Positions 38,882 to 59,152 of a stretch of 64,000 nt of DNA are shown in pieces (the stretch's first letter is position 1; every line of letters starts with the position of its first letter). The stretch lies in NCBI GenBank assembly GCA_900319105.1, contig ONND01000004.1, positions 121,456-185,455 on the forward strand, read 5' to 3'. The translations under genes and the position numbers were made by a program. The notes under the pieces are model-generated. The model ran no database searches and was not told the origin of the DNA. It worked only from the letters and a program-made list of their open reading frames with translations. This stretch comes from an uncultured Bacteroidales bacterium. GTDB lineage: Bacteria; Bacteroidota; Bacteroidia; Bacteroidales; Paludibacteraceae.

Positions 38882-41621
38882 TCTCTTCTATGATTTTGGC
38901 AATGTACTTGCCTGTATAACTCTCTTTGCATTGTGCTATCTCTTCCGGCGTACCGGTAGCCACTATATATCCGCCCTCTTTGCCTCCTTCGGGACCCAAG
39001 TCAATCACATGGTCGGCCGCTACGATCACCGCAGGGTTATGCTCGATGATGATCACGGTGTGCCCTTTGCTGATCAGTTGGTTCAGCGCTTTGAGCAGCA
39101 CCTCGATATCGCGGTGATGGAGACCTGTCGTAGGCTCGTCAAAAATGAAGATGGTCGGTTGCGTCGTCTCCTGAGCGAGGAAAGAAGCTAACTTGACACG
39201 CTGACTCTCTCCGCCGGAGAGGGTGCTGCTGCTTTGCCCTAACTGCACATAGCCGATGCCGACGTCCTGCAGCGGTTTGAGCCTCCGTACGATCTTGTCG
39301 CACTCGGGGTCTTCGCTGAAGAAATCTACAGCCTGGTTCACCGTCATACAGAGGATGTCGTAGATCGACTTACCGCGGTAATGAACGTCCAGGATGTCCT
39401 GCTTGAAGCGTCGTCCGTGGCATTGTTCGCACTCAAGTACAAGATCCGCCATGAACTGCATCTCTATGGTGATCGTTCCTTCTCCCTGGCAGGTCTCGCA
39501 TCGTCCGCCCGGCGTGTTGAACGAGAAATGCGCAGGGGTGAACCCCAACTGTTTGGCAAGCGGTTGCTCGGCGTAGAGCCGACGGATCTCGTCGTAGGCC
39601 TTGAGGTAAGTCACAGGGTTGCTGCGGCTGGAACGGCTGAGCGGGTTCTGATCGACAAACTCTACATCTCTCATCAGAGGCAGACTGCCGCGTAAGTGAC
39701 CGAAATCGCCGGTGTGCTCGGCAAAAACACCTCCGTAGTGTTTCTTGAGCGCCGGGTAGAGAACGCGGCTCACCAGACTGGATTTGCCGCTGCCACTAAC
39801 GCCTGTTACGACGGTCATGACGTGCAACGGGAAACGGACGGTCACGTTCTTGAGGTTGTTCTCGCAAGCTCCTTCCACCTCGATATAGTTGTTCCAATGC
39901 CTGCGTTGAGCAGGAATGTGGAACTTAAACAGTTCCGGTCGCGGCACGCCCTCATAGACGATCTCGCCGCCGTGCCTGCCGGCATCCGGACCTACTTCGA
40001 TAATATGATCGGCTGCCGCAATGATGTCCTCGTCGTGTTCTACCACCACGATGGTGTTCCCGAGGTCACGCAGCTCTTTGAGTACACGGATCAGCCGCTC
40101 TGTGTCGCGGGGATGCAGACCGATGGACGGTTCGTCCAGCACATAAAGCGAGCCTACGAGGCTACTTCCCAACGACTTGGCAAGGGAGATACGTTGACTC
40201 TCGCCGCCGGAGAGGGTAGTGCTCTGCCGGTTCAAGGTCAGGTAACTCAATCCTACATCGTGCATGAACTGGATGCGGCTGTTGATCTCATGCAAGAGCA
40301 TTTCCGCTGTCTGCTGCTCGGTTTCGCTTAACTCGATATGCGCAAACCACTCTTTCAGATCCGAAAGCGGCATAGCGCAAAGGTCCTGTATGTTCTTGCC
40401 GTTAATACGCACGTATTCTGCCTCTTTGCGCAGGTGCATGCCATGACAAACAGGGCAGGTGGTCTTGCCTTTATAACGGGCTAAGATCACTTTGTATTGC
40501 AGCCTGTTGTATTGCTGGCTCTCTACTTCCTTGAAGAACTCGTTCAGCCCCTTGAACCATTCGTTTCCGGTCCATAGCAGGTGTTTCTGTTCCTGCGTCA
40601 GGGCGTAATAAGGCGTATGAATAGGAAAATCGAACTTGGCGGCATTATAGATAAGCGCATCCAGCCAGGGTTGCATCTTCTCGCTCTGCCAGCACGCGAT
40701 CGCCTGTTCGTAGATGGATTTCGATTTGTCCGGTACTACGAGGTCTTCGTCGATGCCGGTGACGACTCCCACACCCTTGCACTCGGGGCAGGCTCCTATC
40801 GGGTTGTTGAAATCAAAGAGGTGTTCGCTGGGTTCGATGAACTGGATACCATCCGCCTCAAACCGCTCCGAGAACACCTTTGTCCTTGGACCTTTGTCAC
40901 TTTGTACACTAATCTGGCATTCTCCCTGCCCTTCAAAGAAAGCAGTCTGTACACTGTCGGCGAAGCGGTTGCTGGTCGCTTGCTCATGATCGACGATAAT
41001 ACGATCGACGAGCAGATAGGCCTCGTGTCCCTCTGCTGCCTGCCAGGTAGTGTCGTCCAGACGCACTGTGTCGCCGTCTATGAACAAACGGCTGAAACCC
41101 TGGCTCTGCCAGAGCGCCAACTGCTCCTTCAGGGTACGGCCCTCCGGCAGCACAATCGGACTAAGCAGGTAGAGACGTGTGCCTTGTACCTGCTGTTCCA
41201 TGTAGGAGACGACGTCACGGATGGTATTCTTTTTCACTTCCTCCCCGCTCACGGGCGAGTACGTCCTGCCTACGCGCGCGTACAATAATTTCAAATAGTC
41301 ATAGATCTCCGTCACCGTACCTACGGTAGAACGGGGATTGCGACTGGTCACTTTCTGCTGGATCGCGATAGCCGGCGGGATACCTTCTATCTTCTCGACA
41401 TCCGGTTTCTGCATCCTGCCCATGAACTGGCGGGCATAAGCGCTGAGGCTCTCTACGTAGCGTCGTTGACCTTCCGCATAGAGTGTGTCGAACGCCAGCG
41501 AACTTTTGCCGCTGCCGCTCACACCTGTCACTACAACCAGTTTGTTGCGCGGGATGGTTACCGACACATTCTTGAGGTTGTGCGTATTGGCGCCCTCTAT
41601 GCGAATAAAATCATCAATCAT
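38868..41621 (-). CDS. uvrA: UvrA, excinuclease ABC subunit A
   Basis: About 917 residues from the ATG at 41621 (MIDDFIRIEGANTHNLKNV). Two ABC ATPase modules carry Walker A GVSGSGKSSLAFDTLYAE near residue 33 and GVSGSGKSSLVSRVLYPA in the second half, with LSGGESQRISLA and LSGGESQRVKLA signatures. Zinc-binding cysteine pairs are present (CPECKGVG, CPVCHGMH, CETCQGEG with CEQCHGRR). UvrA finds bulky DNA damage with UvrB in nucleotide excision repair. A cctttgt array adds SDKGPRTKVFSE near residue 240, just before the first zinc module. A TTG one codon upstream and the ATG both lie in an attgatg array. Confidence 0.96.
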   Translation of the reverse strand: MIDDFIRIEGANTHNLKNVSVTIPRNKLVVVTGVSGSGKSSLAFDTLYAEGQRRYVESLSAYARQFMGRMQKPDVEKIEGIPPAIAIQQKVTSRNPRSTVGTVTEIYDYLKLLYARVGRTYSPVSGEEVKKNTIRDVVSYMEQQVQGTRLYLLSPIVLPEGRTLKEQLALWQSQGFSRLFIDGDTVRLDDTTWQAAEGHEAYLLVDRIIVDHEQATSNRFADSVQTAFFEGQGECQISVQSDKGPRTKVFSERFEADGIQFIEPSEHLFDFNNPIGACPECKGVGVVTGIDEDLVVPDKSKSIYEQAIACWQSEKMQPWLDALIYNAAKFDFPIHTPYYALTQEQKHLLWTGNEWFKGLNEFFKEVESQQYNRLQYKVILARYKGKTTCPVCHGMHLRKEAEYVRINGKNIQDLCAMPLSDLKEWFAHIELSETEQQTAEMLLHEINSRIQFMHDVGLSYLTLNRQSTTLSGGESQRISLAKSLGSSLVGSLYVLDEPSIGLHPRDTERLIRVLKELRDLGNTIVVVEHDEDIIAAADHIIEVGPDAGRHGGEIVYEGVPRPELFKFHIPAQRRHWNNYIEVEGACENNLKNVTVRFPLHVMTVVTGVSGSGKSSLVSRVLYPALKKHYGGVFAEHTGDFGHLRGSLPLMRDVEFVDQNPLSRSSRSNPVTYLKAYDEIRRLYAEQPLAKQLGFTPAHFSFNTPGGRCETCQGEGTITIEMQFMADLVLECEQCHGRRFKQDILDVHYRGKSIYDILCMTVNQAVDFFSEDPECDKIVRRLKPLQDVGIGYVQLGQSSSTLSGGESQRVKLASFLAQETTQPTIFIFDEPTTGLHHRDIEVLLKALNQLISKGHTVIIIEHNPAVIVAADHVIDLGPEGGKEGGYIVATGTPEEIAQCKESYTGKYIAKIIEENETK
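40878..40907. repeat. cctttgt array in uvrA, in frame
   Basis: Words cctttgt, ccttgga, cctttgt and cactttgt are read as SVQSDKGPRTKVF. The same heptamer occurs in rimO and the GH2 gene. Confidence 0.75.
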
Positions 41622-41637
41622 CAATCATCAATCACTT
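41611..41637. repeat. tcatcaa tandem array at the uvrA start
   Basis: Three and a half copies of the heptamer tcatcaa fill the gap from the HU-LysM gene stop to the first codons of uvrA (MIDDF). Confidence 0.85.
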
Positions 41638-42855
41638 CATCGCTGCCTCTGCCTTCTCGCGCAAGCGCTCAAGCGTCGCGATTGTGGCTGTATTGGTGGT
41701 GTCCAATTGAGTCTTGGTTAATTTCGGGATACGGATCGGCGTACCTACATCAATCTGATTCGGGTCATCCAGATGATCTTTGTTGGCATCATAGAGGTAG
41801 GGCCAGTAGATCTTCGCGCCGTAATAGCGTTTGGAGATCCATGCCAGACGGCTTCCTTCGCGGATACGCTCTGTGGTGATCAGACGCGGGTACTCGTTGG
41901 TCGGTTCCAGTTGCACATCGTCCTCTTCGGAGGCCTGCAGGAACTCAGCTAAGATCTGCTCGTCGGAGATATACTCTCCGTTGGCATTGGATGCTTCACC
42001 GCTCAACTCAACGGCTTCCGCCTCTTGTGCAATGCTAATGGTGTCCGTAGCAACCGGTTCGGCTGTTTGTTCCACTTGTTCGGTCTGCGGTTTGGGTTGC
42101 ATCCATTCCTCAATCCATCCGCCTATCTGTTCACGCAGGAAGAAATAGCCGACGAGCAATAACAGGAGTAGGATGATCACGCATATAAGGGTATCGCGCA
42201 CGAAATGGTAGCGTTTCTTGGGCTTCGGCGCTGGCATTGGTTCCGGTTCTATAGCCTCTGGCTCTACAACCTTCGGCTCTGTAGCCTCCGGTTCTTCAAC
42301 CTTCGGCTCTGTAGCCTCTGGCTCTACAACCTTCGGTTCTGTAGCCTCCGGCTCTACAACCTTCGGCTCTACAACCTTCGGTTCTTCAACCTTCGGTTCT
42401 GTAGCCTCTGGCTCTACAACCTTCGGTTCTGTAGCCTCCGGCTCTTCTTTCGGGCTTTGACCCAACTCGCCTAAGATGCCGACGATCTCGTCTGCCTGCG
42501 CACCGAGTTTCTGAATCGGGTCATCGGCCAGTTCCAAAGCTTGTGCAGTGGCGCCGACCACGCCGGTTTTCTCAATCAACTCTTTGACGCCGGCTTCGGG
42601 CACGAACGCAACCTTGTTGTAACCCTCGATCATGATCTCTTCGCCGGTGGTTACATTCACGCTCTTACGCGGCGCGACGGCTTGTAACTTAAAGATACCC
42701 AAACCGTTGATTTTCACTTGCTTGTCTTGCTTTAAGGCCTCTACTAACTGCTCGTTAAAGGCATTCAGAAACGTATTTGCTTCTTTCTCGCTGACCCCTG
42801 CGCGTGTAGCTAACGCACGGCGGAGTTCGGTCCAACTGAGTTTGTTCTCTGCCAT
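41632..42855 (-). CDS. HU-type DNA-binding domain fused to membrane helix and LysM-like domain
   Basis: A 407-residue protein of unusual build. Residues 1-95 are a HU/IHF-like domain ([20 protein letters not shown], then [20 protein letters not shown]). Residues 138-207 are 14 acidic pentapeptides of type [10 protein letters not shown] and EPKVE. A basic stop [11 protein letters not shown] precedes one membrane helix (222-239, [16 protein letters not shown]). The periplasmic part is acidic and ends with a LysM-like domain (about 328-378: [18 protein letters not shown] ... [10 protein letters not shown]). Positive residues before the helix put the HU part in the cytoplasm, so it could tie chromosomal DNA to peptidoglycan. 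It follows a plain HU gene by three bases. Function not proven; the domain order is clear. Confidence 0.88.
42235..42444. repeat. 15-base coding repeats (EPxxx pentapeptides)
   Basis: Fourteen tandem 15-base units encode [20 protein letters not shown] and EPEPM. Units are nearly identical at DNA level, so copy number may vary by slippage, changing the length of the cytoplasmic linker. Confidence 0.9.
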
Positions 42856-42858
42856 GGC

Positions 42859-43137
42859 TTAGATATTTTTAAGTTCATCTTTTACGTTTGTCACCGGGCG
42901 GAATACCAACTGGTTCTTGCTGGGAACGATCTTCCGTTCGCCGGAATTAGGGAGCACGATCACGCGCTCTTTTTTCTCTTTCACCTCCAGCGTTCCGAGG
43001 CCCTGTAGTTGTACGGCTTTGCCGCTCATCAAAGTCTCACGGATGATGGCGTTGCTCGTGCTCAGCAGTTCTTCCACTTTCTTTTTGCTCATTCCTGTTG
43101 CGTCTGCAATCAGGCCGATTAGATTTTTCGTTAGCAT
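42859..43137 (-). CDS. HU/IHF-family DNA-binding protein
   Basis: A 92-residue HU-like protein: MLTKNLIGLIADATGMSKKK, then VQLQGLGTLEVKEKKERV, and a PNSGERKIVPSKNQLVFRPV arm. HU proteins bend and compact DNA as dimers. The gene lies three bases before the HU-LysM fusion, so the two may form mixed dimers. It ends with a short DELKNI tail. The family is certain; a specific role (HU or IHF type) is not. Confidence 0.92.
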   Translation of the reverse strand: MLTKNLIGLIADATGMSKKKVEELLSTSNAIIRETLMSGKAVQLQGLGTLEVKEKKERVIVLPNSGERKIVPSKNQLVFRPVTNVKDELKNI

Positions 43138-43147
43138 ATAGTGTTGG

Positions 43148-44551
43148 TTATTGTATTTCTCCGTATAAATCGAACTCCTCCGCCTTGGTGATCTTCACCT
43201 CCACGAATTCCCCGATTAGTCCTTTGTACATTGTCCTTTGTCCCTTTGTACTTATCAACACTTCGCAATCCACTTCGGGGCTGTCGTATTGGGTTCTGCC
43301 GATGAGGTATTCCCCTTCTTCCCGGTCGATGATGACGCGTTGGGTAGTTCCCACGAATCGAGCCATCAGTGCGGCACTTATTCCCTGCTGGATAGCCATC
43401 AGTTCTGCCGCGCGGGCATCTTTGACTTCCTGCGGGATGTCGTCTTTATAGTGTTTGTTGGCATAAGTACCTTCCTCGTCCGAGTAGGCGAAACAGCCCA
43501 TCCGGTCGAAACGCATCTCCTTCACCCATTCTTTCAGCTCCTCAAAATCTTCTTCTGTTTCACCCGGATGCCCTACTAACAGGGTGGTGCGGATACAAAT
43601 GCCCGGCACTTTCTCGCGGATCTTCCGAATCAAGGCATCCTGTTCCGCTCTCGTTATATGCCGTCTCATCAGCCCTAACATATGATCCGTGCAATGCTGC
43701 AAAGCGATGTCGAGGTACTTGCATACATTGGTATGTTTGGCCATGACATCCAGCAATCCCTCCGGAAAATCCGTCGGGTAGGCGTAGTGCAGCCGGATCC
43801 ATTCAACCCCCTCTATCTCTGCCATCTTGTCAATCAGTTCCGGCAGTAAATGTTCCTTTGTCCTTTGTCCTTTGTCCCTTTGTCCCTTATTGAGGTCCAG
43901 CCCATAACTGCTTAAATCCTGAGCAATGACGTTAAACTCCTTGACGCCTTGCCCCACCAGCCATCTCACTTCGTCCAATATCTCCTCCATCGGCCGGCTG
44001 GTATGCCGTCCCGTGATCAACGGAATAGCGCAGTACGAACACATCCGGTTGCAGCCCTCCGAGATCTTCAAATACGCATAATGTTTCGGTGTCGTCAGCT
44101 TCCGCTCAAACGAAGCGCAGCCGTTTGCTTCTTTCGTCAATTGTGCCGGATGGCATCCGGCTTCCCCTCCCTTTTGGGAGGGGGTAGGGGTGGGGTTTCC
44201 TACTCCTTCTACCATCTTCTCGAAATCAAACTTCCCGTAATAAGCATCCACCTCCGGCAACTCCTCTTCCAACTCAGCCCGGTAGCGCTCGCTCAGGCAT
44301 CCCATGACGATCAGTTGCTTCAGCTTGCCGGCTTTCTTGCGCTCTGCCATCTGGAGAATCATGTTAATACTCTCCTCTTTGGCGTCACCGATGAATCCGC
44401 AGGTATTGATGACGCAGATCTCTCCTTTCGGCTCTTCCGGGTCATGCACGCAACGCCATCCGCCAGCTTCTAACTGTCGCATGACCCGCTCTGCATCCAC
44501 CAGGTTCTTCGAGCAGCCTAATGTGATAAAATCTATTACGCCTTTTTGCAT
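43148..44551 (-). CDS. rimO: RimO, ribosomal protein S12 methylthiotransferase
   Basis: A 467-residue radical SAM enzyme that methylthiolates Asp of ribosomal protein S12. The UPF0004 N-domain has TLGCSKNLVDAE and INTCGFIGDAKEES with its iron-sulfur cysteines. The radical SAM motif is CNRMCSYC (near residue 166), and the C-terminal TRAM domain ends AEEFDLYGEI. The family is normally about 430-440 residues; the surplus comes from repeats. A palindromic element plus hairpin adds about 30 residues (NPTPTPSQKGGEAGCHPAQ...) between the two domains. Two cctttgt arrays give DLNKGQRDKGQRTKEH and STKGQRTMYKG. Catalytic motifs are intact. Confidence 0.95.
   Translation of the reverse strand: MQKGVIDFITLGCSKNLVDAERVMRQLEAGGWRCVHDPEEPKGEICVINTCGFIGDAKEESINMILQMAERKKAGKLKQLIVMGCLSERYRAELEEELPEVDAYYGKFDFEKMVEGVGNPTPTPSQKGGEAGCHPAQLTKEANGCASFERKLTTPKHYAYLKISEGCNRMCSYCAIPLITGRHTSRPMEEILDEVRWLVGQGVKEFNVIAQDLSSYGLDLNKGQRDKGQRTKEHLLPELIDKMAEIEGVEWIRLHYAYPTDFPEGLLDVMAKHTNVCKYLDIALQHCTDHMLGLMRRHITRAEQDALIRKIREKVPGICIRTTLLVGHPGETEEDFEELKEWVKEMRFDRMGCFAYSDEEGTYANKHYKDDIPQEVKDARAAELMAIQQGISAALMARFVGTTQRVIIDREEGEYLIGRTQYDSPEVDCEVLISTKGQRTMYKGLIGEFVEVKITKAEEFDLYGEIQ
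43220..43255. repeat. cctttgt tandem array in rimO (TRAM region)
   Basis: Words cctttgta, cattgt, cctttgt, ccctttgt are read as ISTKGQRTMYKG just ahead of the last strands of the TRAM domain. Confidence 0.8.
43853..43889. repeat. cctttgt tandem array in rimO (radical SAM region)
   Basis: Five tandem words cctttgt, cctttgt, cctttgt, ccctttgt, ccctta are read as NKGQRDKGQRTKE between SSYGLDL and LLPELIDKM. Confidence 0.85.
44145..44196. repeat. Small hairpin plus GC-rich palindromic element in rimO
   Basis: A perfect hairpin gccggat-ggc-atccggc (44145-44161) is joined to a palindromic element copy (cccctcccttttgggagggg then gtaggggtggg). Both are read in frame at the domain linker. Confidence 0.85.
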
Positions 44552-44562
44552 AGATGTCCTTT

Positions 44563-44594
44563 CTCCTCCCCTTCATGGGGAGGTCGGGTGGGGC
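44563..44594. repeat. GC-rich palindromic element between recQ and rimO
   Basis: ctcctccccttcatggggag then gtcgggtggggc. It occupies the 44-base gap between the recQ stop and the rimO start. It could fold in mRNA but lacks a T-tract. Confidence 0.8.
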
Positions 44595-44595
44595 T

Positions 44596-46779: not shown

Positions 46780-46814
46780 GTTCTATATCTTTCCTCGATT
46801 TCTTAATTTGGCTG

Positions 46815-46845
46815 CAAAGATACGAAATATATTTTATATACGCAA
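46815..46845 (-). promoter_or_regulatory. Promoter of recQ and the downstream run
   Basis: On the minus strand TTG (46845-46843) followed by cgtatat, a 20-base spacer, then TATCTTTG (46822-46815) and cagccaaatt, the same downstream stretch as at 23159. Confidence 0.8.
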
Positions 46846-47152
46846 ATTTTTCTGAACTTTTCTTTATTTTTCCTATTTCTTTCCTGCGCTTCTCCTGCTC
46901 CTTTCCCGCTTCTTTATTGATCCTCTACGAACCTTTTATGGGCTCTTTCTTACCCCGTTCTCGGGTATTTGTTACTCTGTCTGCTTATCGCACCGAAGGA
47001 TTACCCAACCATTACCGAAGGATTACCCAAGGATAACACGCCAAAACGTGAAATTTCGCGCTTTTACTGTATATATACTATGTATATATACACTTTTTCA
47101 CTATCTCTGTTCATTTCTGAATACCGCCGGAGCTTGGGACTTTGTCCATTGC

Positions 47153-47171
47153 GCCTGCATCGAATGCAGGC
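47153..47171. other. Small perfect hairpin
   Basis: gcctgcat-cga-atgcaggc, an 8-base perfect stem with a 3-base loop. It is followed by a second cctgcatcgaagcat sequence without the partner arm. Confidence 0.7.
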
Positions 47172-47219
47172 ATTCTCTGCTCCACCTGCATCGAAGCATC
47201 CGCCTCCAACACCCGCCTT

Positions 47220-47313
47220 GTCGTATGTGCTCCGGCAAAAACATTCTTTTGCGGATGGGGAGCGCAAAAGCATGAGTGGGGGGCACCACGTTTTTTGCGG
47301 AGCAGCATACGAC
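47220..47313. other. Long stem-loop with internal hairpin
   Basis: The outer arms gtcgtatgtgctccggcaaa (47220 on) and tttgcggagcagcatacgac (ending 47313) pair with two small bulges. Inside is a perfect 8-base stem, cttttgcg (47246-47253) with cgcaaaag (47263-47270). It could be a structured RNA or a small palindromic mobile element. Confidence 0.65.
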
Positions 47314-47386: not shown

Positions 47387-47427
47387 CCCCCTAAACCCCT
47401 AACCCCTAACCCCTAAACCCCTAATCC
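47387..47427. repeat. cccctaa tandem array
   Basis: Five to six units of cccctaa/cccctaaa, the most regular of the short arrays. No gene overlaps it. Confidence 0.85.
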
Positions 47428-47594: not shown

Positions 47595-48941
47595 ATGCAG
47601 AAACGGAATTTATCCTTTGCGCAACTCTTCAATCTGAGTTTCGGTTTCTTCGGAGTACAAATTGCCTACGCTCTTCAGAGCGCTAACATCTCCCGTATTT
47701 TTGCTACCTTGGGCGCTGACCCCCACACGCTGAGTTTCTTCTGGATCCTCCCCCCGCTGATGGGTATGATCGTACAGCCCCTCGTTGGTAAATATAGTGA
47801 CAAGACCTGGACGCGTCTGGGACGTCGTAAACCCTACCTGCTCGTGGGCGCGCTTATCGCGGTCGCGGTGATGTTACTCCTGCCTAATGCCGGTAACTTT
47901 ACCTTCACGCAATCCCTCTTCCTGGGCCTCAATGCGGCGATGTGGTTCGGACTCTTCTCGCTCATGTTCCTCGATACGTCGATCAATATCGCGATGCAGC
48001 CCTTCAAGATGATGGTGGGCGACATGGTAAACGAAGAGCAGAAAGGTACCGCCTATGCCATCCAATCGGCTCTCTGTAACGCCGGTTCGCTGGTTGGCTA
48101 CGTCTTCCCGATCTTCTTTACCTGGATCGGTATTGCGAACACGGCTCCCGAGGGCGTCATTCCCGATTCTGTCAAATGGTCCTTCTACGCGGGCGCACTG
48201 ATTCTTATATTATGCTCGCTTTACACCTTCGCAACCGTCAAGGAGCTGAACCCACAGGAATACGCTGAATTCCACGGAATAAGCCAACAGCCAACAGCTA
48301 AAAGCCAAGAGCCGGAGGAAGGTCTCATCACCTTGCTCCGCAACGCCCCCTCCGCTTTCTGGACGGTAGGCCTCGTGCAGTTCTTCTGCTGGGCGGCCTT
48401 TATGTATATGTGGACCTATTCGAACGGAGCTATCGCCTCCAACTGCTATGGATGGGATGGCGCGAATGCGGCAGATGCGGCTTTCCAGACTGCCGGTAAC
48501 TGGGTCGGAGTGGTATTCGCTATCCAGGCGGTCGGTTCGCTTGTTTGGGCGGCATTCATTCCGGCTCTGGAGAAATGGTTCGGCAACAAGGGTGCTTACG
48601 CCATTTCGTTGGTTGTGGGCGCTATCGGATTTATCTCGATTTGGTATGTGACGAACCCGTACGTGCTCTTCCTCAGCTACGCGCTCATCGGCGCCGCTTG
48701 GGCCGCTATGCTGGCACTTCCGTTTACGATCGTGACGAACGCAATCAAGGGCGGAAACATGGGCTATTACCTGGGGCTATTCAATTGTACAATCTGTGTT
48801 CCGCAAATCGTTGCAGCTCTCTGCGGAGGTTTACTCCTTAAATATATATGCGCGCACGTACAAGCCGGTATGCTCGTCGTAGCCGGTGCTCTCTTGCTCT
48901 TCGGCGCCGCATCGGTCTTCTTGATCAAAGAGAAAGAATAA
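47595..48941 (+). CDS. MFS sugar transporter (SLC45/sucrose-maltose type)
   Basis: A 448-residue protein with about 12 membrane helices. The N-terminus LSFAQLFNLSFGFFGVQIAY and the loop KTWTRLGRRKPYLLVG (an RxGRR signature after helix 2-3) are typical of the SLC45/plant sucrose transporter branch of the MFS, which takes up disaccharides by H+ symport. It would move sugars across the inner membrane after SusC/SusD import. A tandem array encodes GISQQPTAKSQEPEEG in the central cytoplasmic loop between helices 6 and 7, a tolerant site. The downstream lipoprotein and Sus genes may share its transcript, as no other promoter was found before them. Confidence 0.9.
   Translation: MQKRNLSFAQLFNLSFGFFGVQIAYALQSANISRIFATLGADPHTLSFFWILPPLMGMIVQPLVGKYSDKTWTRLGRRKPYLLVGALIAVAVMLLLPNAGNFTFTQSLFLGLNAAMWFGLFSLMFLDTSINIAMQPFKMMVGDMVNEEQKGTAYAIQSALCNAGSLVGYVFPIFFTWIGIANTAPEGVIPDSVKWSFYAGALILILCSLYTFATVKELNPQEYAEFHGISQQPTAKSQEPEEGLITLLRNAPSAFWTVGLVQFFCWAAFMYMWTYSNGAIASNCYGWDGANAADAAFQTAGNWVGVVFAIQAVGSLVWAAFIPALEKWFGNKGAYAISLVVGAIGFISIWYVTNPYVLFLSYALIGAAWAAMLALPFTIVTNAIKGGNMGYYLGLFNCTICVPQIVAALCGGLLLKYICAHVQAGMLVVAGALLLFGAASVFLIKEKE
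48281..48315. repeat. agccaac tandem array in frame
   Basis: Words agccaac, agccaac, agctaaa, agccaag, agccgg are read as SQQPTAKSQEP in the MFS central loop. Confidence 0.8.
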
Positions 48942-52900: not shown

Positions 52901-53215
52901 TTCGATACCTACTATGTAGATGGTTACAATACGAAAATCTACAATGCTGATGGTAGCGCAGAACTCAAAGATGCTGATTATGATATTACAGATCGTTTCT
53001 TGGAGAATGCTTCTTTCCTTCGTTGTGATAACATCACACTCGGTTACTCCTTCACCAAGAATAAAGTGTCCGGTCGTGCGTTCTGTACCGTTTCGAACCC
53101 GTTCATTGTTACCAAGTATTCGGGACTTGATCCGGAAATCGGTCTGGGTGGTGTAGATAACTCCATCTATCCGCGTTCCATGACTACCGTACTCGGTATT
53201 AACCTCCAATTCTAA
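49997..53215 (+). CDS. SusC/RagA TonB-linked outer-membrane transporter
   Basis: About 1072 residues from the ATG at 49997 (signal peptide MKKLNMFRIFSIALMLMMSS...FA). A CarboxypepD_reg-like domain follows (LTVQGTVIDQANGEPIIGAS), then the TonB box region VLDEVVVVGYG and the plug with the SusC signature SPLVIDGL-type motif (here NDPLIVIDGLAMDNNG) and VLKDASATAIYGSRASNGVI. The long barrel ends TVLGINLQF with the terminal aromatic. It imports oligosaccharides or peptides with SusD as lid. The upstream ATG at 49973 adds eight residues without signal character. No repeat insertion was seen. Confidence 0.95.
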   Translation: MKKLNMFRIFSIALMLMMSSVVAFAQLTVQGTVIDQANGEPIIGASILEVGTTNGTITDFDGNFTLNVQPGAKLSISYMGYKTQELAATSSMKVSMGEDTEVLDEVVVVGYGVVKKNDATGSVTAIKPDEMNKGLQTNAQDMIQGKIAGVNVSTDGGTPGGGATIRIRGGSSLNASNDPLIVIDGLAMDNNGILGVSNPLSLVNPNDIETFTVLKDASATAIYGSRASNGVILITTKKGKAGQKMKVTYDGNVSFGTVVKHLGVLNGDELRAYATASGQSTQANQYLMNDDVDWFKQIYRTAISTDHNISLTGGFKDKNVDMPYRASVGYTLNNGAVKGSQMQRVTAALNLNPSFLDNHLSFNINAKGMYIYNEYEPGIAGAYLDKDPTQPIYSTGDLTNIDGNLILAGSANGKDYYVTKEELDTHWDGFFQPLGISDNAHGPYEDTTWMYSLKSQANPLAMLKHQSNKSNAGQFVGNMEANYKIHGFEDLVLHANFGADYSFAKKTNKNSPYGTANHYTGWDGWEKKMKYNLQFNCFAQYGHDWEQAQQHFDIMAGYEWQHFYNEYNSEGNGMYPLTYLDVTKAGQPAYASKSTGKGENYLVSFFGRLNWIGWNQIMVTATVRGDGSSRFSKNHRWGVFPSVAVGWKIKESFMKDVHWLNDLKLRLGYGITGQQEGIGDYSYMPSYTQTTGHTSYYPVGGTNYATENNDVNIVEAVTDINGDTLYISDRPNGYNPDLTWEKTTTYNAGLDFAFLNNRISGSIDYYYRKTTDLLNNVNVAMGTNFRKRVMSNVGSLRNQGVEFAINAVILDYGKKFKWDLGYNVTWNENRITKINGEETMIDGSGYAGVGLAGKSITKYAVDKPTNVFYLYEAQKCTREDGSQYWTIVDQNNDGSINEQDKVFKHSPVAPVTMGFQMKFQFYNFDLGMSFRANIGNYVFNNVIATRLQNVPAGNLTRDNYYKNLPIDVFDTYYVDGYNTKIYNADGSAELKDADYDITDRFLENASFLRCDNITLGYSFTKNKVSGRAFCTVSNPFIVTKYSGLDPEIGLGGVDNSIYPRSMTTVLGINLQF

Positions 53216-53242
53216 TTCTGATAACTGAAAACAAATAATATT

Positions 53243-54994
53243 ATGAAAAATTTATTGAAAATAGCGGTTCTGGTAATGGCAGTAGCAGGCTTGACGGCGT
53301 GTGTGAAAGACCTCAATACCAAACCTATTGACCCGAACTCATCTACGTCCTTTAACCAGGAACGTATGTTCACCAAGTGCTATTCCTGCTTGGCGCTCAT
53401 CGGTCAGTCCAGTCCCAAAGAAGATTCCGATGTAGAGGATATCGATGCTGGTACTTCCGGTTTCTATCGTACCATTTGGTATTGCAACGAGCTCTCCTCC
53501 GATGAGGCTTGGTGGATTTGGGACGATAAGGAGGCTGTGCAGCTAAATTCAACCAACTGGAATGGTACCAATACTATGATTCGGGCTATCTATACCCGTC
53601 TCGTGCTGGATATCAAGTATTGCAACCACTATCTGACTTATGCTTCGGAAGATACAGACGAGGATAAATATCGTAAGGCAGAGGTACGCTTCATTCGTGC
53701 TCTCCATTACTTCTACCTTTTGGATATGTACCTCTATGCGCCGTTTTTAACGGAGGATTCCAATGAATTCCCCCATTTTAAACCGCGTCATGAGATTTAT
53801 CAATGGCTTGTAGAAGAACTTCGCGATTTAACAATAGTTCTGCCTGACCATCGTTTGAACAAGTACCGTGTGGGTAAAGCCGCTGCTAAACTCCTGTTGG
53901 CGCGTGTTTACCTCAATGCCGATGTGTACAACAAATACAATAAATCGTGGACGGAAAAAAGTGCACTTGACAATGCCATTAAGTACGCAGATGCGGCTAT
54001 CAGCGATGATGGACAGCATGGGCTGGTTACTGCTCCGATAGTATCAGACTCCGGTTTCGTATATACTGCATATCAACGCCTCTTCATGGGCGACAACGAC
54101 CGTGAGGACGTAGTAAAGGAATCGCTCCTGCAAATTTATCAGGATGGTTTGTATGCGCAAAGTTACGCTACCTCTATGATGCTCATTGGTGCTAACCGTA
54201 TCCAAGGAATGATCCCATGGGGTATTGAATCGGAGTGGCACTCAATGCGTACATCGCCAACCTTGATTGATAAGTTCCTCAAAGTGAAGAATATCCAGAA
54301 TATCGACCGTGAGACCGCAAAAGCTATGCGTTACGATGAGTACCATATGCCCGCACAGTTGAAAGACGACCGTGCTATCTTCTGCTCCGATGGCTTGAAT
54401 ACAGGAAAGCAGTTCAGTCTCAGTGGTCCTATGGAGCTTGGCGATACCAAATACTTGTTTGATTGTTGGGCAGGACTCAAGTTCACGGGCGTTTATTCAA
54501 CGGCTTCGCTACCGAAGTACTCGCCACGTCAGAGCAAAGATTGGCCTGATACGGACATCCCGCTGCTCCGTATCGCGGAAGCATACATGATTCGAGGAGA
54601 AGCTAAAGCACGTAAGTCTGGTAACTGGAATGACGCAATTGCAGACGTGAATGTTCTCCGTGACCGTGCAAACGCTCCTCTTCTGGCCTCAATGGACGAA
54701 GAAACGATGCTGGACGAGTGGAGTCGTGAGTTCTGGTACGAGGGACGCCGTCGTATTGACCTCGTCCGCTTTGGACGTTTCTTCGGTAAGGAGGCTGACC
54801 AGTATCGCTATCATTGGGAAGGCCGTATGGGTAACACGGATAGTAAGCCGTACGTTACCGGTACAGAGGATTATATGAACTGGTTCCCGATCCCGTCTGA
54901 GGATAAACGTTCGAACCCGAACTTCGCGAAAGACGTAGAGGGCGACCCGAATAATATCTATGCTGCGAAAGGCGGTGATGGATATGCATATTAA
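53243..54994 (+). CDS. SusD/RagB surface lipoprotein
   Basis: A 583-residue lipoprotein: MKNLLKIAVLVMAVAGLTAC gives Cys20. It shows SusD features: the N-terminal KDLNTKPIDPNSSTSFNQER, TPR-like helices (RFIRALHYFYLLDMYLYAPF; AKLLLARVYLNADVYN), PLLRIAEAYMIRGEAKAR and the end block ELMxERRREFWYEGRR-like LDEWSREFWYEGRRRIDLVR. It is the glycan-binding lid of the SusC transporter encoded 27 bases upstream. The ligand cannot be inferred from sequence alone; the nearby galactosidase and galactose genes suggest galactosides. Confidence 0.95.
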   Translation: MKNLLKIAVLVMAVAGLTACVKDLNTKPIDPNSSTSFNQERMFTKCYSCLALIGQSSPKEDSDVEDIDAGTSGFYRTIWYCNELSSDEAWWIWDDKEAVQLNSTNWNGTNTMIRAIYTRLVLDIKYCNHYLTYASEDTDEDKYRKAEVRFIRALHYFYLLDMYLYAPFLTEDSNEFPHFKPRHEIYQWLVEELRDLTIVLPDHRLNKYRVGKAAAKLLLARVYLNADVYNKYNKSWTEKSALDNAIKYADAAISDDGQHGLVTAPIVSDSGFVYTAYQRLFMGDNDREDVVKESLLQIYQDGLYAQSYATSMMLIGANRIQGMIPWGIESEWHSMRTSPTLIDKFLKVKNIQNIDRETAKAMRYDEYHMPAQLKDDRAIFCSDGLNTGKQFSLSGPMELGDTKYLFDCWAGLKFTGVYSTASLPKYSPRQSKDWPDTDIPLLRIAEAYMIRGEAKARKSGNWNDAIADVNVLRDRANAPLLASMDEETMLDEWSREFWYEGRRRIDLVRFGRFFGKEADQYRYHWEGRMGNTDSKPYVTGTEDYMNWFPIPSEDKRSNPNFAKDVEGDPNNIYAAKGGDGYAY

Positions 54995-55008
54995 TAAAGA
55001 AGATAAAT

Positions 55009-55047
55009 ATCGAGACATCGACGTGTCGAGAAATCGATTTATCGAAA
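55009..55047. repeat. atcga-rich tandem array
   Basis: Words atatcgag, acatcgac, gtgtcgag, aaatcgat, ttatcgaa in the gap after SusD. Confidence 0.65.
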
Positions 55048-55089
55048 ATAAACAACTCAATTAACATTATTAACTAAATTTTTAAAATT

Positions 55090-56466
55090 ATGCGTAAATT
55101 TTATGCTTTTTTGGCTGCTGCGCTGATGAGCGTTAGCGTATTTGCAGCAAAAGACGTCGTTCCGTCGGACGCAACTATCATGGATGCATGTGGCGGTGAG
55201 GTAGGCCAAGTAGTAGTAAGTATTTTCGTGCCCGCTGACATGGCTTGTTTTGATGTTGTCTTCGTTGGTACTTACAACAACTGGGGCAAAGGCGAAGGTA
55301 CGGTAGAAGATGCAGCTAATTGCAAGAAATTCGAGGCTATCGAAGGCTATGATGGTTGGTATGCTGTAGCTGTAGATGATGAGTCTGAGAGTCCGGAAGG
55401 AAAGCCTGTTATGTTGGATGTGGATGGCAAATTTAACTGGGCTTATCAGGTAGGTGCTGCTACGATTATCCGTGGTGGTGTAACCGTTGTAGCCGGTGGT
55501 GTTGCAGGTGAAATTGACCTGAAGACCTATGGTAAGGACGCTCCGAATGTGTACACCGTTGATGCTTGGAAACAAAACCCGTGTACCGCTGTTTATCACA
55601 ACTACAACGTGCAGGTTATTAGTACTGGTTGTGACAACTTGGCAGTTCCGTTCATCATTGGTGGTATGAACAACTGGAATGCTCAAGAGATGCAGATTGA
55701 TGTTGCAAAAACGCAAGAGTTGAAAGTTCCGGTTTATTACCTCAATTTCAAAGCAGCTGAAGGTACTGAGTATCAATTGCTCAGCGGTTTGAGAGATCCG
55801 CAAACCGGAAAGATTGACTCAACTGCTCAACCGGGTTGGAATGATGCTTCTTATCTCCAGATTCTCGTTGACGATGTTTGGGAGCGTTATGAGCCGAGTA
55901 ACTCCAAACTGGGTACAGAGGTTTCTGTAGTTTATGACCTCCGTCTTGACACAATCCGTTGGGCTCGTTGCGCTCCTGCTGAGCCGGAAGAACTGGTTGG
56001 ATTGCAAGTTAAACTCCCTGCAGAGAACTGCCCGGAGGCTGTTGAGGTAATCGGCGGCTTTGATGAATGGCAAGGTACTGCTTTGGCTTTCAACGCTTCT
56101 ACAGGCTACTTCACTGCTGAGTTCGCTGCGAAACCTTCGCAGTTCTTCAAGTTCCGTTCCGCTGGTGCTTGGCCGGATGCAGGTGGTACTGAAATTGAGG
56201 TGTATCGTGATGATGACAATTGGAGTACTATTCAGGATAACGAACTCGTATTCAGCCAACTCTGGCAAGATGGTACCTGCTCTGGTGAGCCTTGCAAAAC
56301 TATTACTCTCGACTTCAGCGGTGAAAAATATCGTTGGAAAGCTATCGAGCAAGGTATTGAGAATGTAACCCTGACCGAGAAGGCTCACAAGGTAATGGTG
56401 GACGGTGTAATGTACATCATCCGTGACAACAAGATGTTCAACGTACAAGGTACTCAAGTTCGTTAA
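55090..56466 (+). CDS. Secreted GxxNNW-repeat protein with short type IX tail (SusE/F-like position)
   Basis: A 458-residue protein with signal peptide MRKFYAFLAAALMSVSVFA. Three beta-sandwich units are visible with glycogen/starch-binding style motifs: VFVGTYNNWGKGEG (near 55), FIIGGMNNWNAQE (near 195) and VEVIGGFDEWQGT (near 318). The end (KAHKVMVDGVMYIIRDNKMFNV) is a typical short type IX sorting tail. It follows SusD, where SusE/SusF-type binding proteins are found, so it may capture the same glycan at the surface; binding is not shown. A strong terminator follows. Confidence 0.8.
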   Translation: MRKFYAFLAAALMSVSVFAAKDVVPSDATIMDACGGEVGQVVVSIFVPADMACFDVVFVGTYNNWGKGEGTVEDAANCKKFEAIEGYDGWYAVAVDDESESPEGKPVMLDVDGKFNWAYQVGAATIIRGGVTVVAGGVAGEIDLKTYGKDAPNVYTVDAWKQNPCTAVYHNYNVQVISTGCDNLAVPFIIGGMNNWNAQEMQIDVAKTQELKVPVYYLNFKAAEGTEYQLLSGLRDPQTGKIDSTAQPGWNDASYLQILVDDVWERYEPSNSKLGTEVSVVYDLRLDTIRWARCAPAEPEELVGLQVKLPAENCPEAVEVIGGFDEWQGTALAFNASTGYFTAEFAAKPSQFFKFRSAGAWPDAGGTEIEVYRDDDNWSTIQDNELVFSQLWQDGTCSGEPCKTITLDFSGEKYRWKAIEQGIENVTLTEKAHKVMVDGVMYIIRDNKMFNVQGTQVR

Positions 56467-56485
56467 TGAACATGCTTTACTTCAG

Positions 56486-56513
56486 CCCTTCCCTTCATGG
56501 GAGGGACTGAGGT
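56486..56513. repeat. GC-rich palindromic element after the Sus unit
   Basis: cccttcccttcatgggaggg then actgagg, close to the copy at 44563. It lies just after the GxxNNW-protein stop and before the terminator. Confidence 0.8.
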
Positions 56514-56523
56514 AGTCTCATAA

Positions 56524-56562
56524 AAAAAATAGCTCGGGCTCCCCCGGGCTATTTTTTGTTTT
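56524..56562. terminator. Bidirectional rho-independent terminator
   Basis: aaaaaatagctcggg pairs with cccgggctatttttt (one G-T wobble, 4-base loop), with A-tract and T-tract on the two sides. It serves the plus-strand Sus unit and, in reverse, the convergent galactosidase gene. Confidence 0.9.
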
Positions 56563-56580
56563 TTAGCTTTTGTCTCTTTT

Positions 56581-56636
56581 CTCTTACAGGCGCTTGCGCC
56601 GGTCTTACAGCATCGCGGTCTTACAGTGCAACGGTC
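56581..56636. repeat. 23-25 base unit family at the GH2 3' end
   Basis: cttacaggcgcttgcgccg, then gtcttacagcatcgcg, then gtcttacagtgcaacggtc. The last unit is read on the minus strand as the final codons and stop of the galactosidase gene. Confidence 0.7.
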
Positions 56637-59152
56637 ATTCGGAAAGTGCCTTTCGCTCCTTTCCGAATAATAAACGTACATTGCCCGGCAAAAGCGTGCA
56701 TCTGCGGTTCTACGAAACTATCCAGACAAGCTGCATCGCCATTAGCCGCCGCTATAAACCCTTCGCCTTCGTAGCAGATCAGGTTGTTTGCCTTCGGACA
56801 GAGGTTGCCTTCCTTATCTACCACGCGCACGGTGTAGTAGCATAACTCCTCCGGGTTCTCTTTCTCGTTGGCCCAAACTACCTCTAAATGGTCAGGCTCA
56901 CCGGCGGTGCGGATGGTCTCACGCGCTGCCTCTTTGCCCTCTGCATCATACGCCACCACTTCTATCTCGCCTTTCTCAAACGGCACGTCGAACCACATCA
57001 GTCTATACCGCGGCAGTAACTCCGGTCTCGGCGCAGAGCCCCAAACAGGAATCTCAAACGTACCCACCTTCGGCATCTCACTCACTTTCGCCGTCTTTTC
57101 TCCCTCTCCTTGGGAGAGGGTCGGGGTGAGGCTCTCTTCTTTCGTCGCAAAACGCAACTTGCCGTAACTCTTGCCGTTGACGAAAAGCTCGGCGCTGGGG
57201 TAGGTGGTATAGCAGAAGACAGGCACAGTGTCACCCTCGTTCCAGTTCCAGTGCGGCAACAGATGCAAAGTCGCCTCCTCTTTGTTCCATTGGCTGCGAT
57301 AGAGCCAATAACGGTCTTTGGGCAGCGATGCCAAGTCAATAATGCCGAAATAACTGCTATGGCTCGGCCATGCGTCCGTATCGTACGGCGAAGGCTCGCC
57401 TAAGTAGTCGAAGCCCGTCCATACGAACTGACCGAGCGTCCAGTTATAGTCGTCCTGCAGCTGAAAATCCTGCTCCGGCAGTCCCGACCATGCGCAATAC
57501 TCCAAGTCGTAGCCGCTACTCTGATTGTCTTCGTACTTCGCATCGGGCTGAATAACGGCAGGGATCTTATACACGCCGCGGCTCGAAACGGTAGAAGCCG
57601 TTTCGCTGCCTAAGATCATCTTCTGTGGCAAATTTTCGTAACCTTCTATATAGCGTCCCGTACGGTAGTTGAAGCCCGGGATCTCCACCGCTGCGCCGAA
57701 CCCGTTATGGATGACGTGCATCGCCTGATCCATTCCGTTCGTCACCGGACGGGTGGGGTCGAGCTGATGGAAGAGGTCCTGTAACTTAGTTACGATCTCT
57801 ATACCATCCGGCAGCACTTGGTTCCATACCTCGTTGCCGCTGGACCAGAGCATCACACAGGCGTTATTCCGATAGTGCTTTACCATATTCGTGATATCCC
57901 ATTTCCACCAGTCGTCGAACTCCACGCTGTAGTCGTTCTCTGTCTTACCGTGGTTCCATACATCGAAAGGCTCGATCATCATCATCATTCCCATCTCGTC
58001 GCATAACTCCACGAGTTCCGGCGCAGGCATGTTATGGCTCGTGCGGATGGCGTCGCAGCCCATCTCTTTGAGCATCGTGATCTGATGACGCAGCGCATCT
58101 TTATGCACCGCTGCACCCAACGGACCTAAGTCGTGGTGAAGACATACACCCTTGAACTTACGCGTCTCGCCATTCAGTTGAAAACCACCCTCCGGTGTAT
58201 AACTGATCGACCGGATACCAAACCGCGTCTCTACCTCATCTACTATTTCGTCCTTTGTCCTTTGTCCTTTGTCCTGTGTCTTATACACCCTCGTCCGCGC
58301 GGTATAGAGCTCCGGCGTCTCGGGGCTCCATAATTGTGGGTTTAGCACCTCGGCTACACCTTGCTGTCCCTCTGCCGTCGCTACGACCTTTCCTTTATAG
58401 AGTATATCGGTCTGAATACTGAGCCCTTCATTCGTTAACTCGTTCATTCGTTCACTCGTTAACTCCTCAACGCCGTCCTGCAGTTCCACCTCTACCGTCA
58501 CTTGGGCAAATTCTTTGCTCACTTTGGGTGTCCGAACCAGCACACCGAAAGTGGGTATATGGATAGGGTTGGTCTCTACCAGATGCACATTGCGGTACAA
58601 TCCTGCGCCCGGATACCAACGGCTCTGCTGGGGTTTGTTCTCCAGAAAGACATCAATGGTCACCTCTGAATACTGATCGCTGACATCTGAATTCTCCATC
58701 GCTTGCGGCAGGATGTAGCAATCAAACGTGTTGTACCCGTACGGCCAATAAACCACCTCTTCGCCGTTGATATAGACATCGGCATGACTCATCGCACCAT
58801 CGAAAACAAGGGTATAGAACTTGTCCTTGTTCACTTTGACGCGCGTACGGTAGTGCCCTTTGCCCATCCATGGCAGGCCTCCGCTGCGTCCGGTTTTCCA
58901 ACTCGGCTCTTTCTCTCCGTTCTGAACAACGATGACCTCCTGCAGGTCGTTCGAGCGGTCGAATGGACCGCTGATAGCCCAGTCGTGAGGGATAGTAACG
59001 TCCTGCCAAACAGGATTTTCAGTCGTGTCTTGGGTAAACTGCCACGCACGAAGCAACGTGTCAGTACGCACTGATTGTTTCGTGGAACAGCCACAAAAGA
59101 CCATGCTGCCAATCAGCAGCATGGTGTACATGATATTGAATGGAACTTTCAT
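56621..59152 (-). CDS. Glycoside hydrolase family 2 lipoprotein (beta-galactosidase-like)
   Basis: An 843-residue protein with signal MKVPFNIMYTMLLIGSMVFCGC (lipid Cys20 or 22). The GH2 layout is a sugar-binding N-domain (VTIPHDWAISGPFDR; GLPWMGKGHYRTRVKV), an immunoglobulin-like domain, and a TIM barrel with acid/base Glu in SSGNEVWNQ (near 415) and the likely nucleophile Glu in ILGSETAS. C-terminal beta domains follow. It cleaves beta-galactosides in the periplasm or at the surface. Repeat insertions: GVEELTSERMNELTNEGLS, KTQDKGQRTKDEIVDE, ENSDVSDQYSEVT and SLTPTLSQGEGEK; its last codons lie in another repeat. It follows galM by 16 bases. Confidence 0.9.
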   Translation of the reverse strand: MKVPFNIMYTMLLIGSMVFCGCSTKQSVRTDTLLRAWQFTQDTTENPVWQDVTIPHDWAISGPFDRSNDLQEVIVVQNGEKEPSWKTGRSGGLPWMGKGHYRTRVKVNKDKFYTLVFDGAMSHADVYINGEEVVYWPYGYNTFDCYILPQAMENSDVSDQYSEVTIDVFLENKPQQSRWYPGAGLYRNVHLVETNPIHIPTFGVLVRTPKVSKEFAQVTVEVELQDGVEELTSERMNELTNEGLSIQTDILYKGKVVATAEGQQGVAEVLNPQLWSPETPELYTARTRVYKTQDKGQRTKDEIVDEVETRFGIRSISYTPEGGFQLNGETRKFKGVCLHHDLGPLGAAVHKDALRHQITMLKEMGCDAIRTSHNMPAPELVELCDEMGMMMMIEPFDVWNHGKTENDYSVEFDDWWKWDITNMVKHYRNNACVMLWSSGNEVWNQVLPDGIEIVTKLQDLFHQLDPTRPVTNGMDQAMHVIHNGFGAAVEIPGFNYRTGRYIEGYENLPQKMILGSETASTVSSRGVYKIPAVIQPDAKYEDNQSSGYDLEYCAWSGLPEQDFQLQDDYNWTLGQFVWTGFDYLGEPSPYDTDAWPSHSSYFGIIDLASLPKDRYWLYRSQWNKEEATLHLLPHWNWNEGDTVPVFCYTTYPSAELFVNGKSYGKLRFATKEESLTPTLSQGEGEKTAKVSEMPKVGTFEIPVWGSAPRPELLPRYRLMWFDVPFEKGEIEVVAYDAEGKEAARETIRTAGEPDHLEVVWANEKENPEELCYYTVRVVDKEGNLCPKANNLICYEGEGFIAAANGDAACLDSFVEPQMHAFAGQCTFIIRKGAKGTFRMTVAL
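57100..57132. repeat. GC-rich palindromic element in GH2 gene
   Basis: ctccctctccttgggagagg then gtcggggtgagg, read as SLTPTLSQGEGE between beta domains. Confidence 0.85.
58249..58280. repeat. cctttgt array in GH2 gene
   Basis: Four words cctttgt, cctttgt, cctttgt, cctgtgt are read as TQDKGQRTKDE in the immunoglobulin-like domain. Confidence 0.85.
58425..58468. repeat. ttcattcg/ttaactcg array in GH2 gene
   Basis: Words cattcgtt, aactcgtt, cattcgtt, cactcgtt, aactcc are read as EELTSERMNELTNEG. It is the same word type as the array at 33997. Confidence 0.85.
58662..58696. repeat. ctctgaat/ctgacat array in GH2 gene
   Basis: acctctgaatactgatcgct then gacatctgaattctcc, read as ENSDVSDQYSEVT. 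It resembles the end of the array at 31245. Confidence 0.65.

What the first reader, a model, noticed from the sequence alone, without database searches (positions are those of the whole stretch)
40878..58280. One heptamer (cctttgt) inserted in frame in three unrelated housekeeping genes
Tandem cctttgt arrays are read as DKGQRTK-type peptides in rimO (twice: 43853-43889, 43220-43255), uvrA (40878-40907) and the GH2 gene (58249-58280), and occur between genes at 701-742. The peptide sits in loops or linkers while all catalytic motifs stay intact. Seven-base units stay in frame only in certain copy numbers, so selection must filter these inserts. This resembles the short tandemly repeated sequences described in cyanobacteria, but inside conserved genes of a Bacteroidales genome.
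Basis: partly seen in the sequence, partly recalled or inferred. Interest (0 to 1): 0.8.

Follow-up and report, generated by a model that had tools for sequence, protein, structure and literature searches.

The report
Genome-specific heptamer arrays inside conserved genes
In a genus of uncultured gut bacteria, tiny seven-letter DNA repeats that differ from species to species have spread through the genome and repeatedly landed, in frame, in flexible loops of ordinary housekeeping enzymes, which points to an undescribed way of moving very short DNA.

Summary
CCTTTGT (sense GGACAAA) arrays lie in rimO (two sites) and the GH2 gene; uvrA has a degenerate copy; the array at 701-742 is mostly TCTTTTA. 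CCTTTGT is one of 42 heptamer units among 71 period-7 arrays in 452 kb of this genome (0.5 in shuffles). Thirteen stretches not chosen for a hit give 10.4 arrays per 100 kb, congeners 9.8, other families of the order 1.4.

The peptides are insertions: 16 of 16 RimO homologues outside the genus lack them. Congeners carry different heptamers at the same loops (rimO: 5 carriers, 4 changes on the tree; GH2: 6 and 6). The inserted unit is one amplified elsewhere in the same genome (13 of 13 hits; 0 of 20,000 random assignments as extreme). FabD and SufB show the same. Empty sites do not resemble the units, flanks are unrelated, and neither a hairpin nor a Y1 transposase appears to be needed.

Best reading: arrays are copied into new sites from arrays already present; selection keeps those that are in frame, open and mostly hydrophilic. 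The copying step is inferred. Heptamer arrays and in-frame selfish DNA are each known; genome-specific units recurring at the same loops were not found in the searches made.

The parts
43855..43891 (-). GGACAAA array in rimO (TCCTTTGTCCTTTGTCCTTTGTCCCTTTGT on +), peptide NKGQRDKGQRTK, +10 aa against empty congeners
   Evidence: absent in 4jc0; pLDDT under 50 at 221-231
43219..43253 (-). second, imperfect GGACAAA/GTACAAT array near the C-terminus of rimO, peptide TKGQRTMYK, in a site of variable length among congeners
40877..40907 (-). degenerate GGACAAA-type insert in uvrA, SDKGPRTK, +12 nt against sister genome G036; related forms in other congeners
58250..58280 (-). GGACAAA array in the GH2 gene, TQDKGQRTKD, +24 nt against sister genome G036
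700..742 (.). intergenic period-7 array, mostly TCTTTTA with one CCTTTGT, followed by an AGCGCAGCGGTC motif
48282..48313 (+). coding heptamer array of another unit (AGCCAAC, peptide SQQPTAN) in ORF 47595-48941; same unit as the CAGCCAA family amplified in G015
22239..22270 (-). heptamer array AAATCTC inside ORF 21584-22648
41609..41634 (-). AATCATC array across the uvrA start codon
43148..44551 (-). rimO
   Evidence: PDB match 4jc0 RimO
38868..41624 (-). uvrA
   Evidence: PDB match 3pih UvrA
56621..59152 (-). GH2-family gene, beta-galactosidase-like
   Evidence: PDB matches 5t98, 9bey

Best explanation
Genomes of this Paludibacteraceae genus hold private sets of amplified heptamers, as tandem arrays of about 3-5 copies scattered through genes and spacers. 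New arrays arise at unrelated sites by copying units from arrays already in that genome. The likeliest route is a brief template switch or repair synthesis into an existing array at a broken or stalled end, followed by slippage and small indels. Selection removes most insertions; those kept in genes are in frame, open, and mostly read as hydrophilic peptides in loops or linkers. Shown: the insertions, their recurrence at the same loops, the match of unit to host repertoire, the unrelated flanks, and a stop and hydropathy bias. Inferred: the copying step and its enzymes, and the absence of any benefit to the protein.
For: Enrichment: 71 period-7 arrays in 452,522 b of this genome, 27 in the 260,000 b not chosen for a hit (10.4 per 100 kb), 39 in 400,000 b from 20 congeners (9.8; 6 of the 20 have none), 5 in 363,572 b from 20 genomes of other families (1.4); shuffles give 0.5 per 452,522 b.

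Indel count not chosen for repeats: among 59 protein indels of 3 aa or more in 67 orthologue pairs of four sister pairs, 10 hold a perfect period-7 run of 8 or more (4, 3, 0 and 3 by pair); shifts 4, 5, 6, 8, 10 and 12 give 0, shifts 9 and 11 give 1 each; shuffles give 0.025.

Genome-specific units: 14-mer dimer counts in 101 genus genomes range from 0 to 14 (GGACAAA), 20 (CAGCCAA), 89 (GTCGAAA), 19 (CATCAAA) and 81 (AAAGGTG) per genome. Sisters G015 and G030 differ 20:1 for CAGCCAA and 38:5 for GTCGAAA, though not for AAAGGTG (38:46).

Match test: in 119 gene copies x 5 units (595 pairs), 13 hits of 12 nt or more, every one in a genome with 4-78 further dimers of that unit; 0 of 20,000 random assignments as extreme, also within the subclade.

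Recurrence: rimO, 5 carriers (one, G036, has an octamer array) need 4 changes; GH2, 6 carriers need 6. Flanks (45-400 bases) of 10 distinct GGACAAA places show no match to each other at E 0.001. Filter: unit stop-free on at least one strand in 52 of 57 coding against 36 of 53 other arrays, p 0.004; sense strand the more hydrophilic in 26 of 34, p 0.003.
Against: No copying event was observed and no donor array identified. Orthologues in the sister pairs are 61-92% identical where they hold indels, so target-site changes could not be read. Insert lengths at the same site are often equal in different species (rimO +30 nt in four), which could also mean that an old array changed its unit in place, although empty sisters speak against that. 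Not every insert at these loops is a heptamer: G036 rimO has period 8 and G004 GH2 period 6. Of 57 coding arrays, 11 have a sense unit that holds a stop, from short arrays or wrong ORF calls, and 8 of 34 are read on the less hydrophilic strand. Units outside genes are richer in A+T, which by itself makes stops likelier, so the stop difference is confounded. The 13 match-test hits are not all independent (5 come from G015). The reversed control for AAAGGTG was not near zero (73 dimers over 101 genomes); its reverse, GTGGAAA, appears to be an amplified heptamer itself (an array of it is seen in G003).
Confidence: 0.6

Rival explanations
1. Local birth: arrays arise by polymerase slippage on the sequence already at the site, and period 7 reflects a property of the polymerase (an idea cited in Rehm et al. 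2015).
For: Explains the strong preference for 7. Slippage is a plausible cause of copy-number change. Heptamers are noted as over-represented in many bacteria (PMC4692102, passages seen).
Against: Empty sites in relatives are no more like the inserted unit than other windows of the same gene (12 events, mean rank 0.47; two of the twelve rank under 0.16). Unit identity follows the host genome. Sister genomes differ 20:1 in one unit.
Confidence: 0.15
2. A dedicated mobile system: an unknown transposase, reverse transcriptase or single-strand DNA enzyme mobilises heptamer arrays as very small elements.
For: Genome-wide spread without shared flanks, genome-specific bursts, recurrent loop targets.
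Against: No ends or hairpins seen; target duplications could not be judged. The one candidate family tested, Y1/REP transposase PF01797, has a match in only 30 of 101 genomes and none in array-bearing G002, G004 and G034, all 90% complete or more. Other families were not tested.
Confidence: 0.2
3. Resident arrays changed their unit in place: one old insertion per loop, homogenised to whichever heptamer is common in each genome by gene conversion.
For: Equal insert length (+30 nt) at the rimO loop for four different units and +21 nt for four GH2 inserts. Several uvrA rows share related degenerate forms.
Against: Empty sisters beside carriers (G030 of G015, G003 of G006) would need repeated clean losses restoring the ancestral loop. 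FabD has one carrier among the 30 rows aligned. In-place conversion would still need units to be copied between loci.
Confidence: 0.12
4. Contingency loci: arrays are kept as frameshift switches for phase variation.
For: Seven is not a multiple of three, so one unit gained or lost shifts the frame.
Against: The five target genes studied are enzymes of general metabolism and repair, arrays are short (median about 4 copies) and often imperfect, and many sit at spacers and gene edges. Copy-number polymorphism was not testable.
Confidence: 0.04
5. Assembly or alignment artefact, or ancestral peptide.
For: The genome is a 90.8% complete draft.
Against: The pattern recurs in many assemblies, at the same loops, with different units; the homologues from outside the genus that were examined lack the peptides.
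Confidence: 0.02

Closest known systems
Short tandemly repeated repetitive (STRR) heptamers of cyanobacteria, and TAACTGA heptamer arrays of Beggiatoaceae, cyanobacteria and some Bacteroidetes (MacGregor 2015, PMC4679880: abstract and two sections read; STRR original papers recalled)
   Same: Seven-base direct repeats, several copies, scattered, sometimes mixed with other heptamers; strain-specific paths noted; a few sets inside ORFs
   Different: There most sets in the main genome are intergenic and coding copies lie mainly at the ends of proteins; here 34 of 71 are wholly inside ORFs, including internal loops of conserved enzymes, with the unit differing by species at the same site
GGGAATC-type heptamers of Xanthomonas and Nostoc (Rehm et al. 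2015, PMC4692102: passages read)
   Same: Heptamer arrays spread genome-wide in short copy numbers, variable between close relatives
   Different: Those are G-quadruplex formers under-represented in coding regions; the five units counted here (GGACAAA, CAGCCAA, GTCGAAA, CATCAAA, AAAGGTG) have no tract of three G or C
Rickettsia palindromic elements (reviews PMC2229807 and PMC10969869: passages read)
   Same: Selfish DNA kept in frame inside conserved protein genes, tolerated by the enzyme
   Different: RPEs are about 105-150 bp hairpin elements with conserved sequence; these arrays are 18-70 nt in the sample, the five units tested form no notable hairpin, and the unit changes by species
REP elements moved by Y1 (RAYT) transposases (recalled; PMC3733652 seen in a search listing only)
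   Same: Short, dispersed, non-autonomous repeats
   Different: No hairpin, and no Y1 match in several array-bearing genomes

Membership tests
STRR / heptamer arrays | tandem direct repeats of 7-nt units scattered through the genome | tested here: met
   71 arrays of 42 units in 452,522 b
STRR / heptamer arrays | mainly intergenic location | tested here: not met
   34 coding, 17 edge, 20 intergenic; still depleted in genes, as ORFs cover 93% of the sample
Rickettsia palindromic element | in-frame insertion into conserved protein genes | tested here: met
   rimO, uvrA, GH2, fabD, sufB
Rickettsia palindromic element | palindromic, hairpin-forming element of about 105-150 bp | tested here: not met
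   five units folded as DNA: 0 to -3.8 kcal/mol, none clearly better than shuffles (best z -1.04); arrays 18-70 nt
REP/RAYT | hairpin with a Y1 transposase in the genome | tested here: not met
   no hairpin; PF01797 matched in 30 of 101 genomes (24 over the cut-off), none in G002, G004, G034 (drafts, so absence is not absolute)
G-quadruplex heptamers | G-tracts of three or more in each unit | tested here: not met
   the five units counted lack GGG and CCC; a few rarer units, such as AACCCCT, have them
Contingency SSR (phase variation) | copy-number polymorphism within a species | not testable with these tools
   one genome per species held

The most novel reading that the evidence does not exclude
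A new class of minimal mobile DNA: end-less heptamer arrays that spread by being used as templates, with a private unit in each species, and whose 7-nt length reads as the same cyclic heptapeptide in all three frames, so that a stop-free unit can colonise coding sequence at any phase.
Probability: 0.35. Interest if true: 0.88.

Novelty: new variant of a known kind. Interest (0 to 1): 0.73.

Why it matters
It would show that very short sequence, with no ends and no known enzyme of its own, can spread through a bacterial genome and enter conserved enzymes repeatedly. It gives a natural experiment: the same loop in sister species is empty or filled by different arrays, so the origin of bacterial heptamer repeats becomes testable. 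It also offers a source of new protein loops, and a caution for annotation and protein-family alignment of such genomes.

Tried and rejected
Seed hypothesis (empty sites resemble the inserted unit): tested on 12 events, not supported. Shared flanks or a larger element around the arrays: none among 10 distinct GGACAAA places. Hairpins: none of note. Y1 transposase: not required. G-quadruplex: does not fit the units counted. The likeness of CCTTTGT to the TACCTTTGC-type 12-mers high in the k-mer list (the -7 box of Bacteroidales is recalled) was noted but cannot explain the other units. A first indel count (13 of 69) counted antisense ORFs and was replaced (10 of 59). The first count of changes on the tree (rimO 5 for 6 carriers, GH2 6 for 8) had labelled G034 (a 2-4 residue insert) and G004 (a hexamer) as carriers; one search replaces it.

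Rows dropped or samples limited: arrays whose best tandem-repeat row had period 14, 15 or 21 are not in the 71 (among them rimO 43855-43885). Seven of the 20 stretches held a CCTTTGT hit and give 23.3 arrays per 100 kb against 10.4 in the other 13. Congener and order stretches were taken from contigs that had shown up in protein searches, not at random. One search kept 30 of 37 genus genomes (at least two of three genes). One search used only the 119 genus copies of five genes. In some searches only the best 30 loci were aligned, out of 61, 61, 47, 31 and 35 genomes with a match. One search looked at 16 RimO rows from outside the genus, of the 64 fetched. Dimer counts are overlapping 14-mers, not arrays. 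Reversed-control totals over 101 genomes: 2, 10, 8, 14 and 73 (added up by hand). Papers: the two term searches aimed at this found none; only open-licence papers are searched.
Full report
What is there. The window lies in a 2.26 Mb draft genome (30 contigs, 90.8% complete). The closest named records are Paludibacteraceae and Bacteroidales MAGs; those whose titles name an animal name ruminants. The heptamer CCTTTGT, read on the minus strand as GGACAAA, forms arrays in rimO (43855-43885 and, imperfectly, 43219-43253) and in a GH2 gene (58250-58280). uvrA carries a degenerate version (40877-40907). Dimers occur 4 times in the window with none expected. The intergenic array at 700-732 is mainly TCTTTTA.

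It is a genome-wide trait. In the window, shift 7 has the most long self-match runs. In a sample of 452,522 bases (window plus 20 stretches) there are 71 period-7 arrays with 42 different units; 34 lie wholly inside ORFs, 17 at gene edges and 20 between genes. ORFs cover 93% of the sample, so genes hold fewer than their share. Dinucleotide shuffles of the same sequence give 0.5. The sample leans towards CCTTTGT, because 7 of the 20 stretches were ones with a hit; the 13 others have 27 arrays in 260,000 b, 10.4 per 100 kb, 17 of them coding. Twenty congeners have 39 arrays in 400,000 b (9.8; 6 of 20 have none), and 20 genomes of other families in the order have 5 in 363,572 b (1.4), a difference of about sevenfold. 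Period 8 is raised as well (5.1 against 0.8 per 100 kb), and an octamer array is read in frame in the GH2 gene at 58427-58465.

The peptides are insertions. Of 30 RimO proteins of the genus, 24 have no lengthening of the loop after SSYGLDL; it is 10 residues longer in G000, G006, G015 and G035, 6 longer in G036 and 2 longer in G034 (genome handles). The four +10 inserts are different heptamers: GGACAAA in G000, GGTGAAA-type in G006, GTACAAA in G015, GGTTACG in G035; that of G036 has period 8. Other congeners add further kinds, for example VESQKSKVES in L103. Sixteen of 16 rows from outside the genus have the short loop. The GH2 hairpin loop is short in many congeners and holds GGACAAA (G000), CAGCCAA (G015, G002, and imperfectly G035), CATCAAA (G007) or ACAATTC (G021); the insert of G004 has period 6. 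uvrA in G007 has a long GTCGAAA array at the site where G000 has its degenerate insert. FabD of G015 has +8 residues from a CAGCCAA array that G003 and G006 lack, and the SufB linker holds CAGCCAA in G015 and GTCGAAA in G001. The best solved homologue of RimO (4jc0) and that of the GH2 protein (5t98) have a gap there, and that of UvrA lacks the peptide. A model of RimO has pLDDT below 50 at 221-231 (the array), 214-218 beside it and 121-141 (another variable linker).

They came more than once. On a tree from 2,095 columns with poorly filled columns, and so the inserts, left out, five rimO carriers need 4 changes and six GH2 carriers need 6. Carriers sit beside empty sisters: G015 beside G030, and G006 beside G003. 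The tree is a quick one with some weak branches.

The unit follows the genome. Dimer searches in 101 genomes of the genus give counts from zero to many. GGACAAA: 28 of 101 genomes, up to 14. CAGCCAA: 12 of 101, up to 20. GTCGAAA: 61 of 101, up to 89. CATCAAA: 16 of 101, up to 19. AAAGGTG: 57 of 101, up to 81. Sisters G015 and G030 differ 20:1 and 38:5 for CAGCCAA and GTCGAAA, but are alike for AAAGGTG (38:46). In 119 copies of five genes tested against five units, 13 hits of 12 nt or more were found. All 13 are in genomes that carry the same unit elsewhere, with 4 to 78 dimers beyond the gene itself; no random assignment out of 20,000 reached the observed mean. Five of the hits come from one genome, G015, so they are not all independent.

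Not local slippage alone. Empty sites in relatives are no closer to the inserted unit than other windows of the same gene (12 events, mean rank 0.47). The flanks of 10 distinct GGACAAA places do not match each other. Five unit arrays fold no better than shuffles to any notable degree. Y1 transposase matches occur in 30 of 101 genomes and in none of G002, G004 and G034, which carry arrays. A count of 59 coding indels between four sister pairs, not chosen for repeats, finds period 7 in 10 and hardly any other period from 4 to 12, so arrays are a notable source of coding indels here. By eye, some other indels in that list are pieces of other dispersed repeats.

How selection acts. Coding arrays have a unit free of stops on at least one strand in 52 of 57 cases, other arrays in 36 of 53 (p 0.004); the other units are richer in A+T, which may explain part of this. 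With the sense strand fixed by the ORF call the figure is 46 of 57. Where both strands are open, the strand actually read is the more hydrophilic one in 26 of 34 (p 0.003). Lengths of the ten period-7 indels are 9, 12, 15, 15, 21, 21, 21, 24, 30 and 42 nt, so three-unit multiples are common but not required; odd-sized units restore the frame. A property of any heptamer (7 = 1 mod 3) is that it reads as the same cyclic heptapeptide in all three frames, so a long enough array is either open or closed for a whole strand.

Mechanism. The best-supported reading is that existing arrays serve as templates: a broken or stalled end copies a few units and returns, leaving a new array of a unit common in that genome. 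This would explain the genome-specific units, the absence of ends and flanks, and mixed arrays. The copying step is inferred. A dedicated enzyme, or in-place change of unit, remains possible.

Relation to the known. MacGregor 2015 describes TAACTGA heptamers, mainly intergenic, with coding copies mostly at protein ends, in Beggiatoaceae, cyanobacteria and a few Bacteroidetes. Rehm 2015 describes G-rich heptamers under-represented in genes and cites a polymerase-slippage idea. Rickettsia palindromic elements are the precedent for in-frame selfish DNA in conserved genes. None of the passages read describes different heptamers at the same loop in sister species matched to each genome's repertoire. 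Searches for tandem repeats with Paludibacteraceae and for heptamer, tandem repeats and Bacteroidales found no papers, in an open-licence library only.

Noticed in passing
57095-57133 (GH2 residues 674-686) and 44150-44197 (RimO residues 119-134): Another dispersed repeat read in frame (SLTPTLSQGEGEK; NPTPTPSQKGGE), with similar peptides in some congeners at the same linkers; other congeners have long different inserts there.
   Followed up: partly
21650-21900, 34244-34253 and 35532-35583: A repeat of the type TCTGTCAGCGNAGCGGTCTTT, in and between genes; in some places beside heptamer arrays.
   Followed up: partly
58427-58465: Octamer array (TTCACTCG) read in frame in the GH2 gene (ELTSERMNELTNEG); G015 has a similar peptide at the same place.
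   Followed up: partly
47388-47424 and 22637-22684: CCCCTAAA and CCACTAA-type arrays, resembling telomere repeats in sequence only.
   Followed up: no
42244-42445: 30-base and 90-base tandem repeats coding a [13 protein letters not shown] stretch in ORF 41632-42855, whose start resembles an HU-like DNA-binding protein (name recalled).
   Followed up: no
L130, L144, L150, L155, L167, L182: Heptamer runs also occur in scattered genomes of other Bacteroidales groups, 3-6 in loci of 15-21 kb.
   Followed up: no
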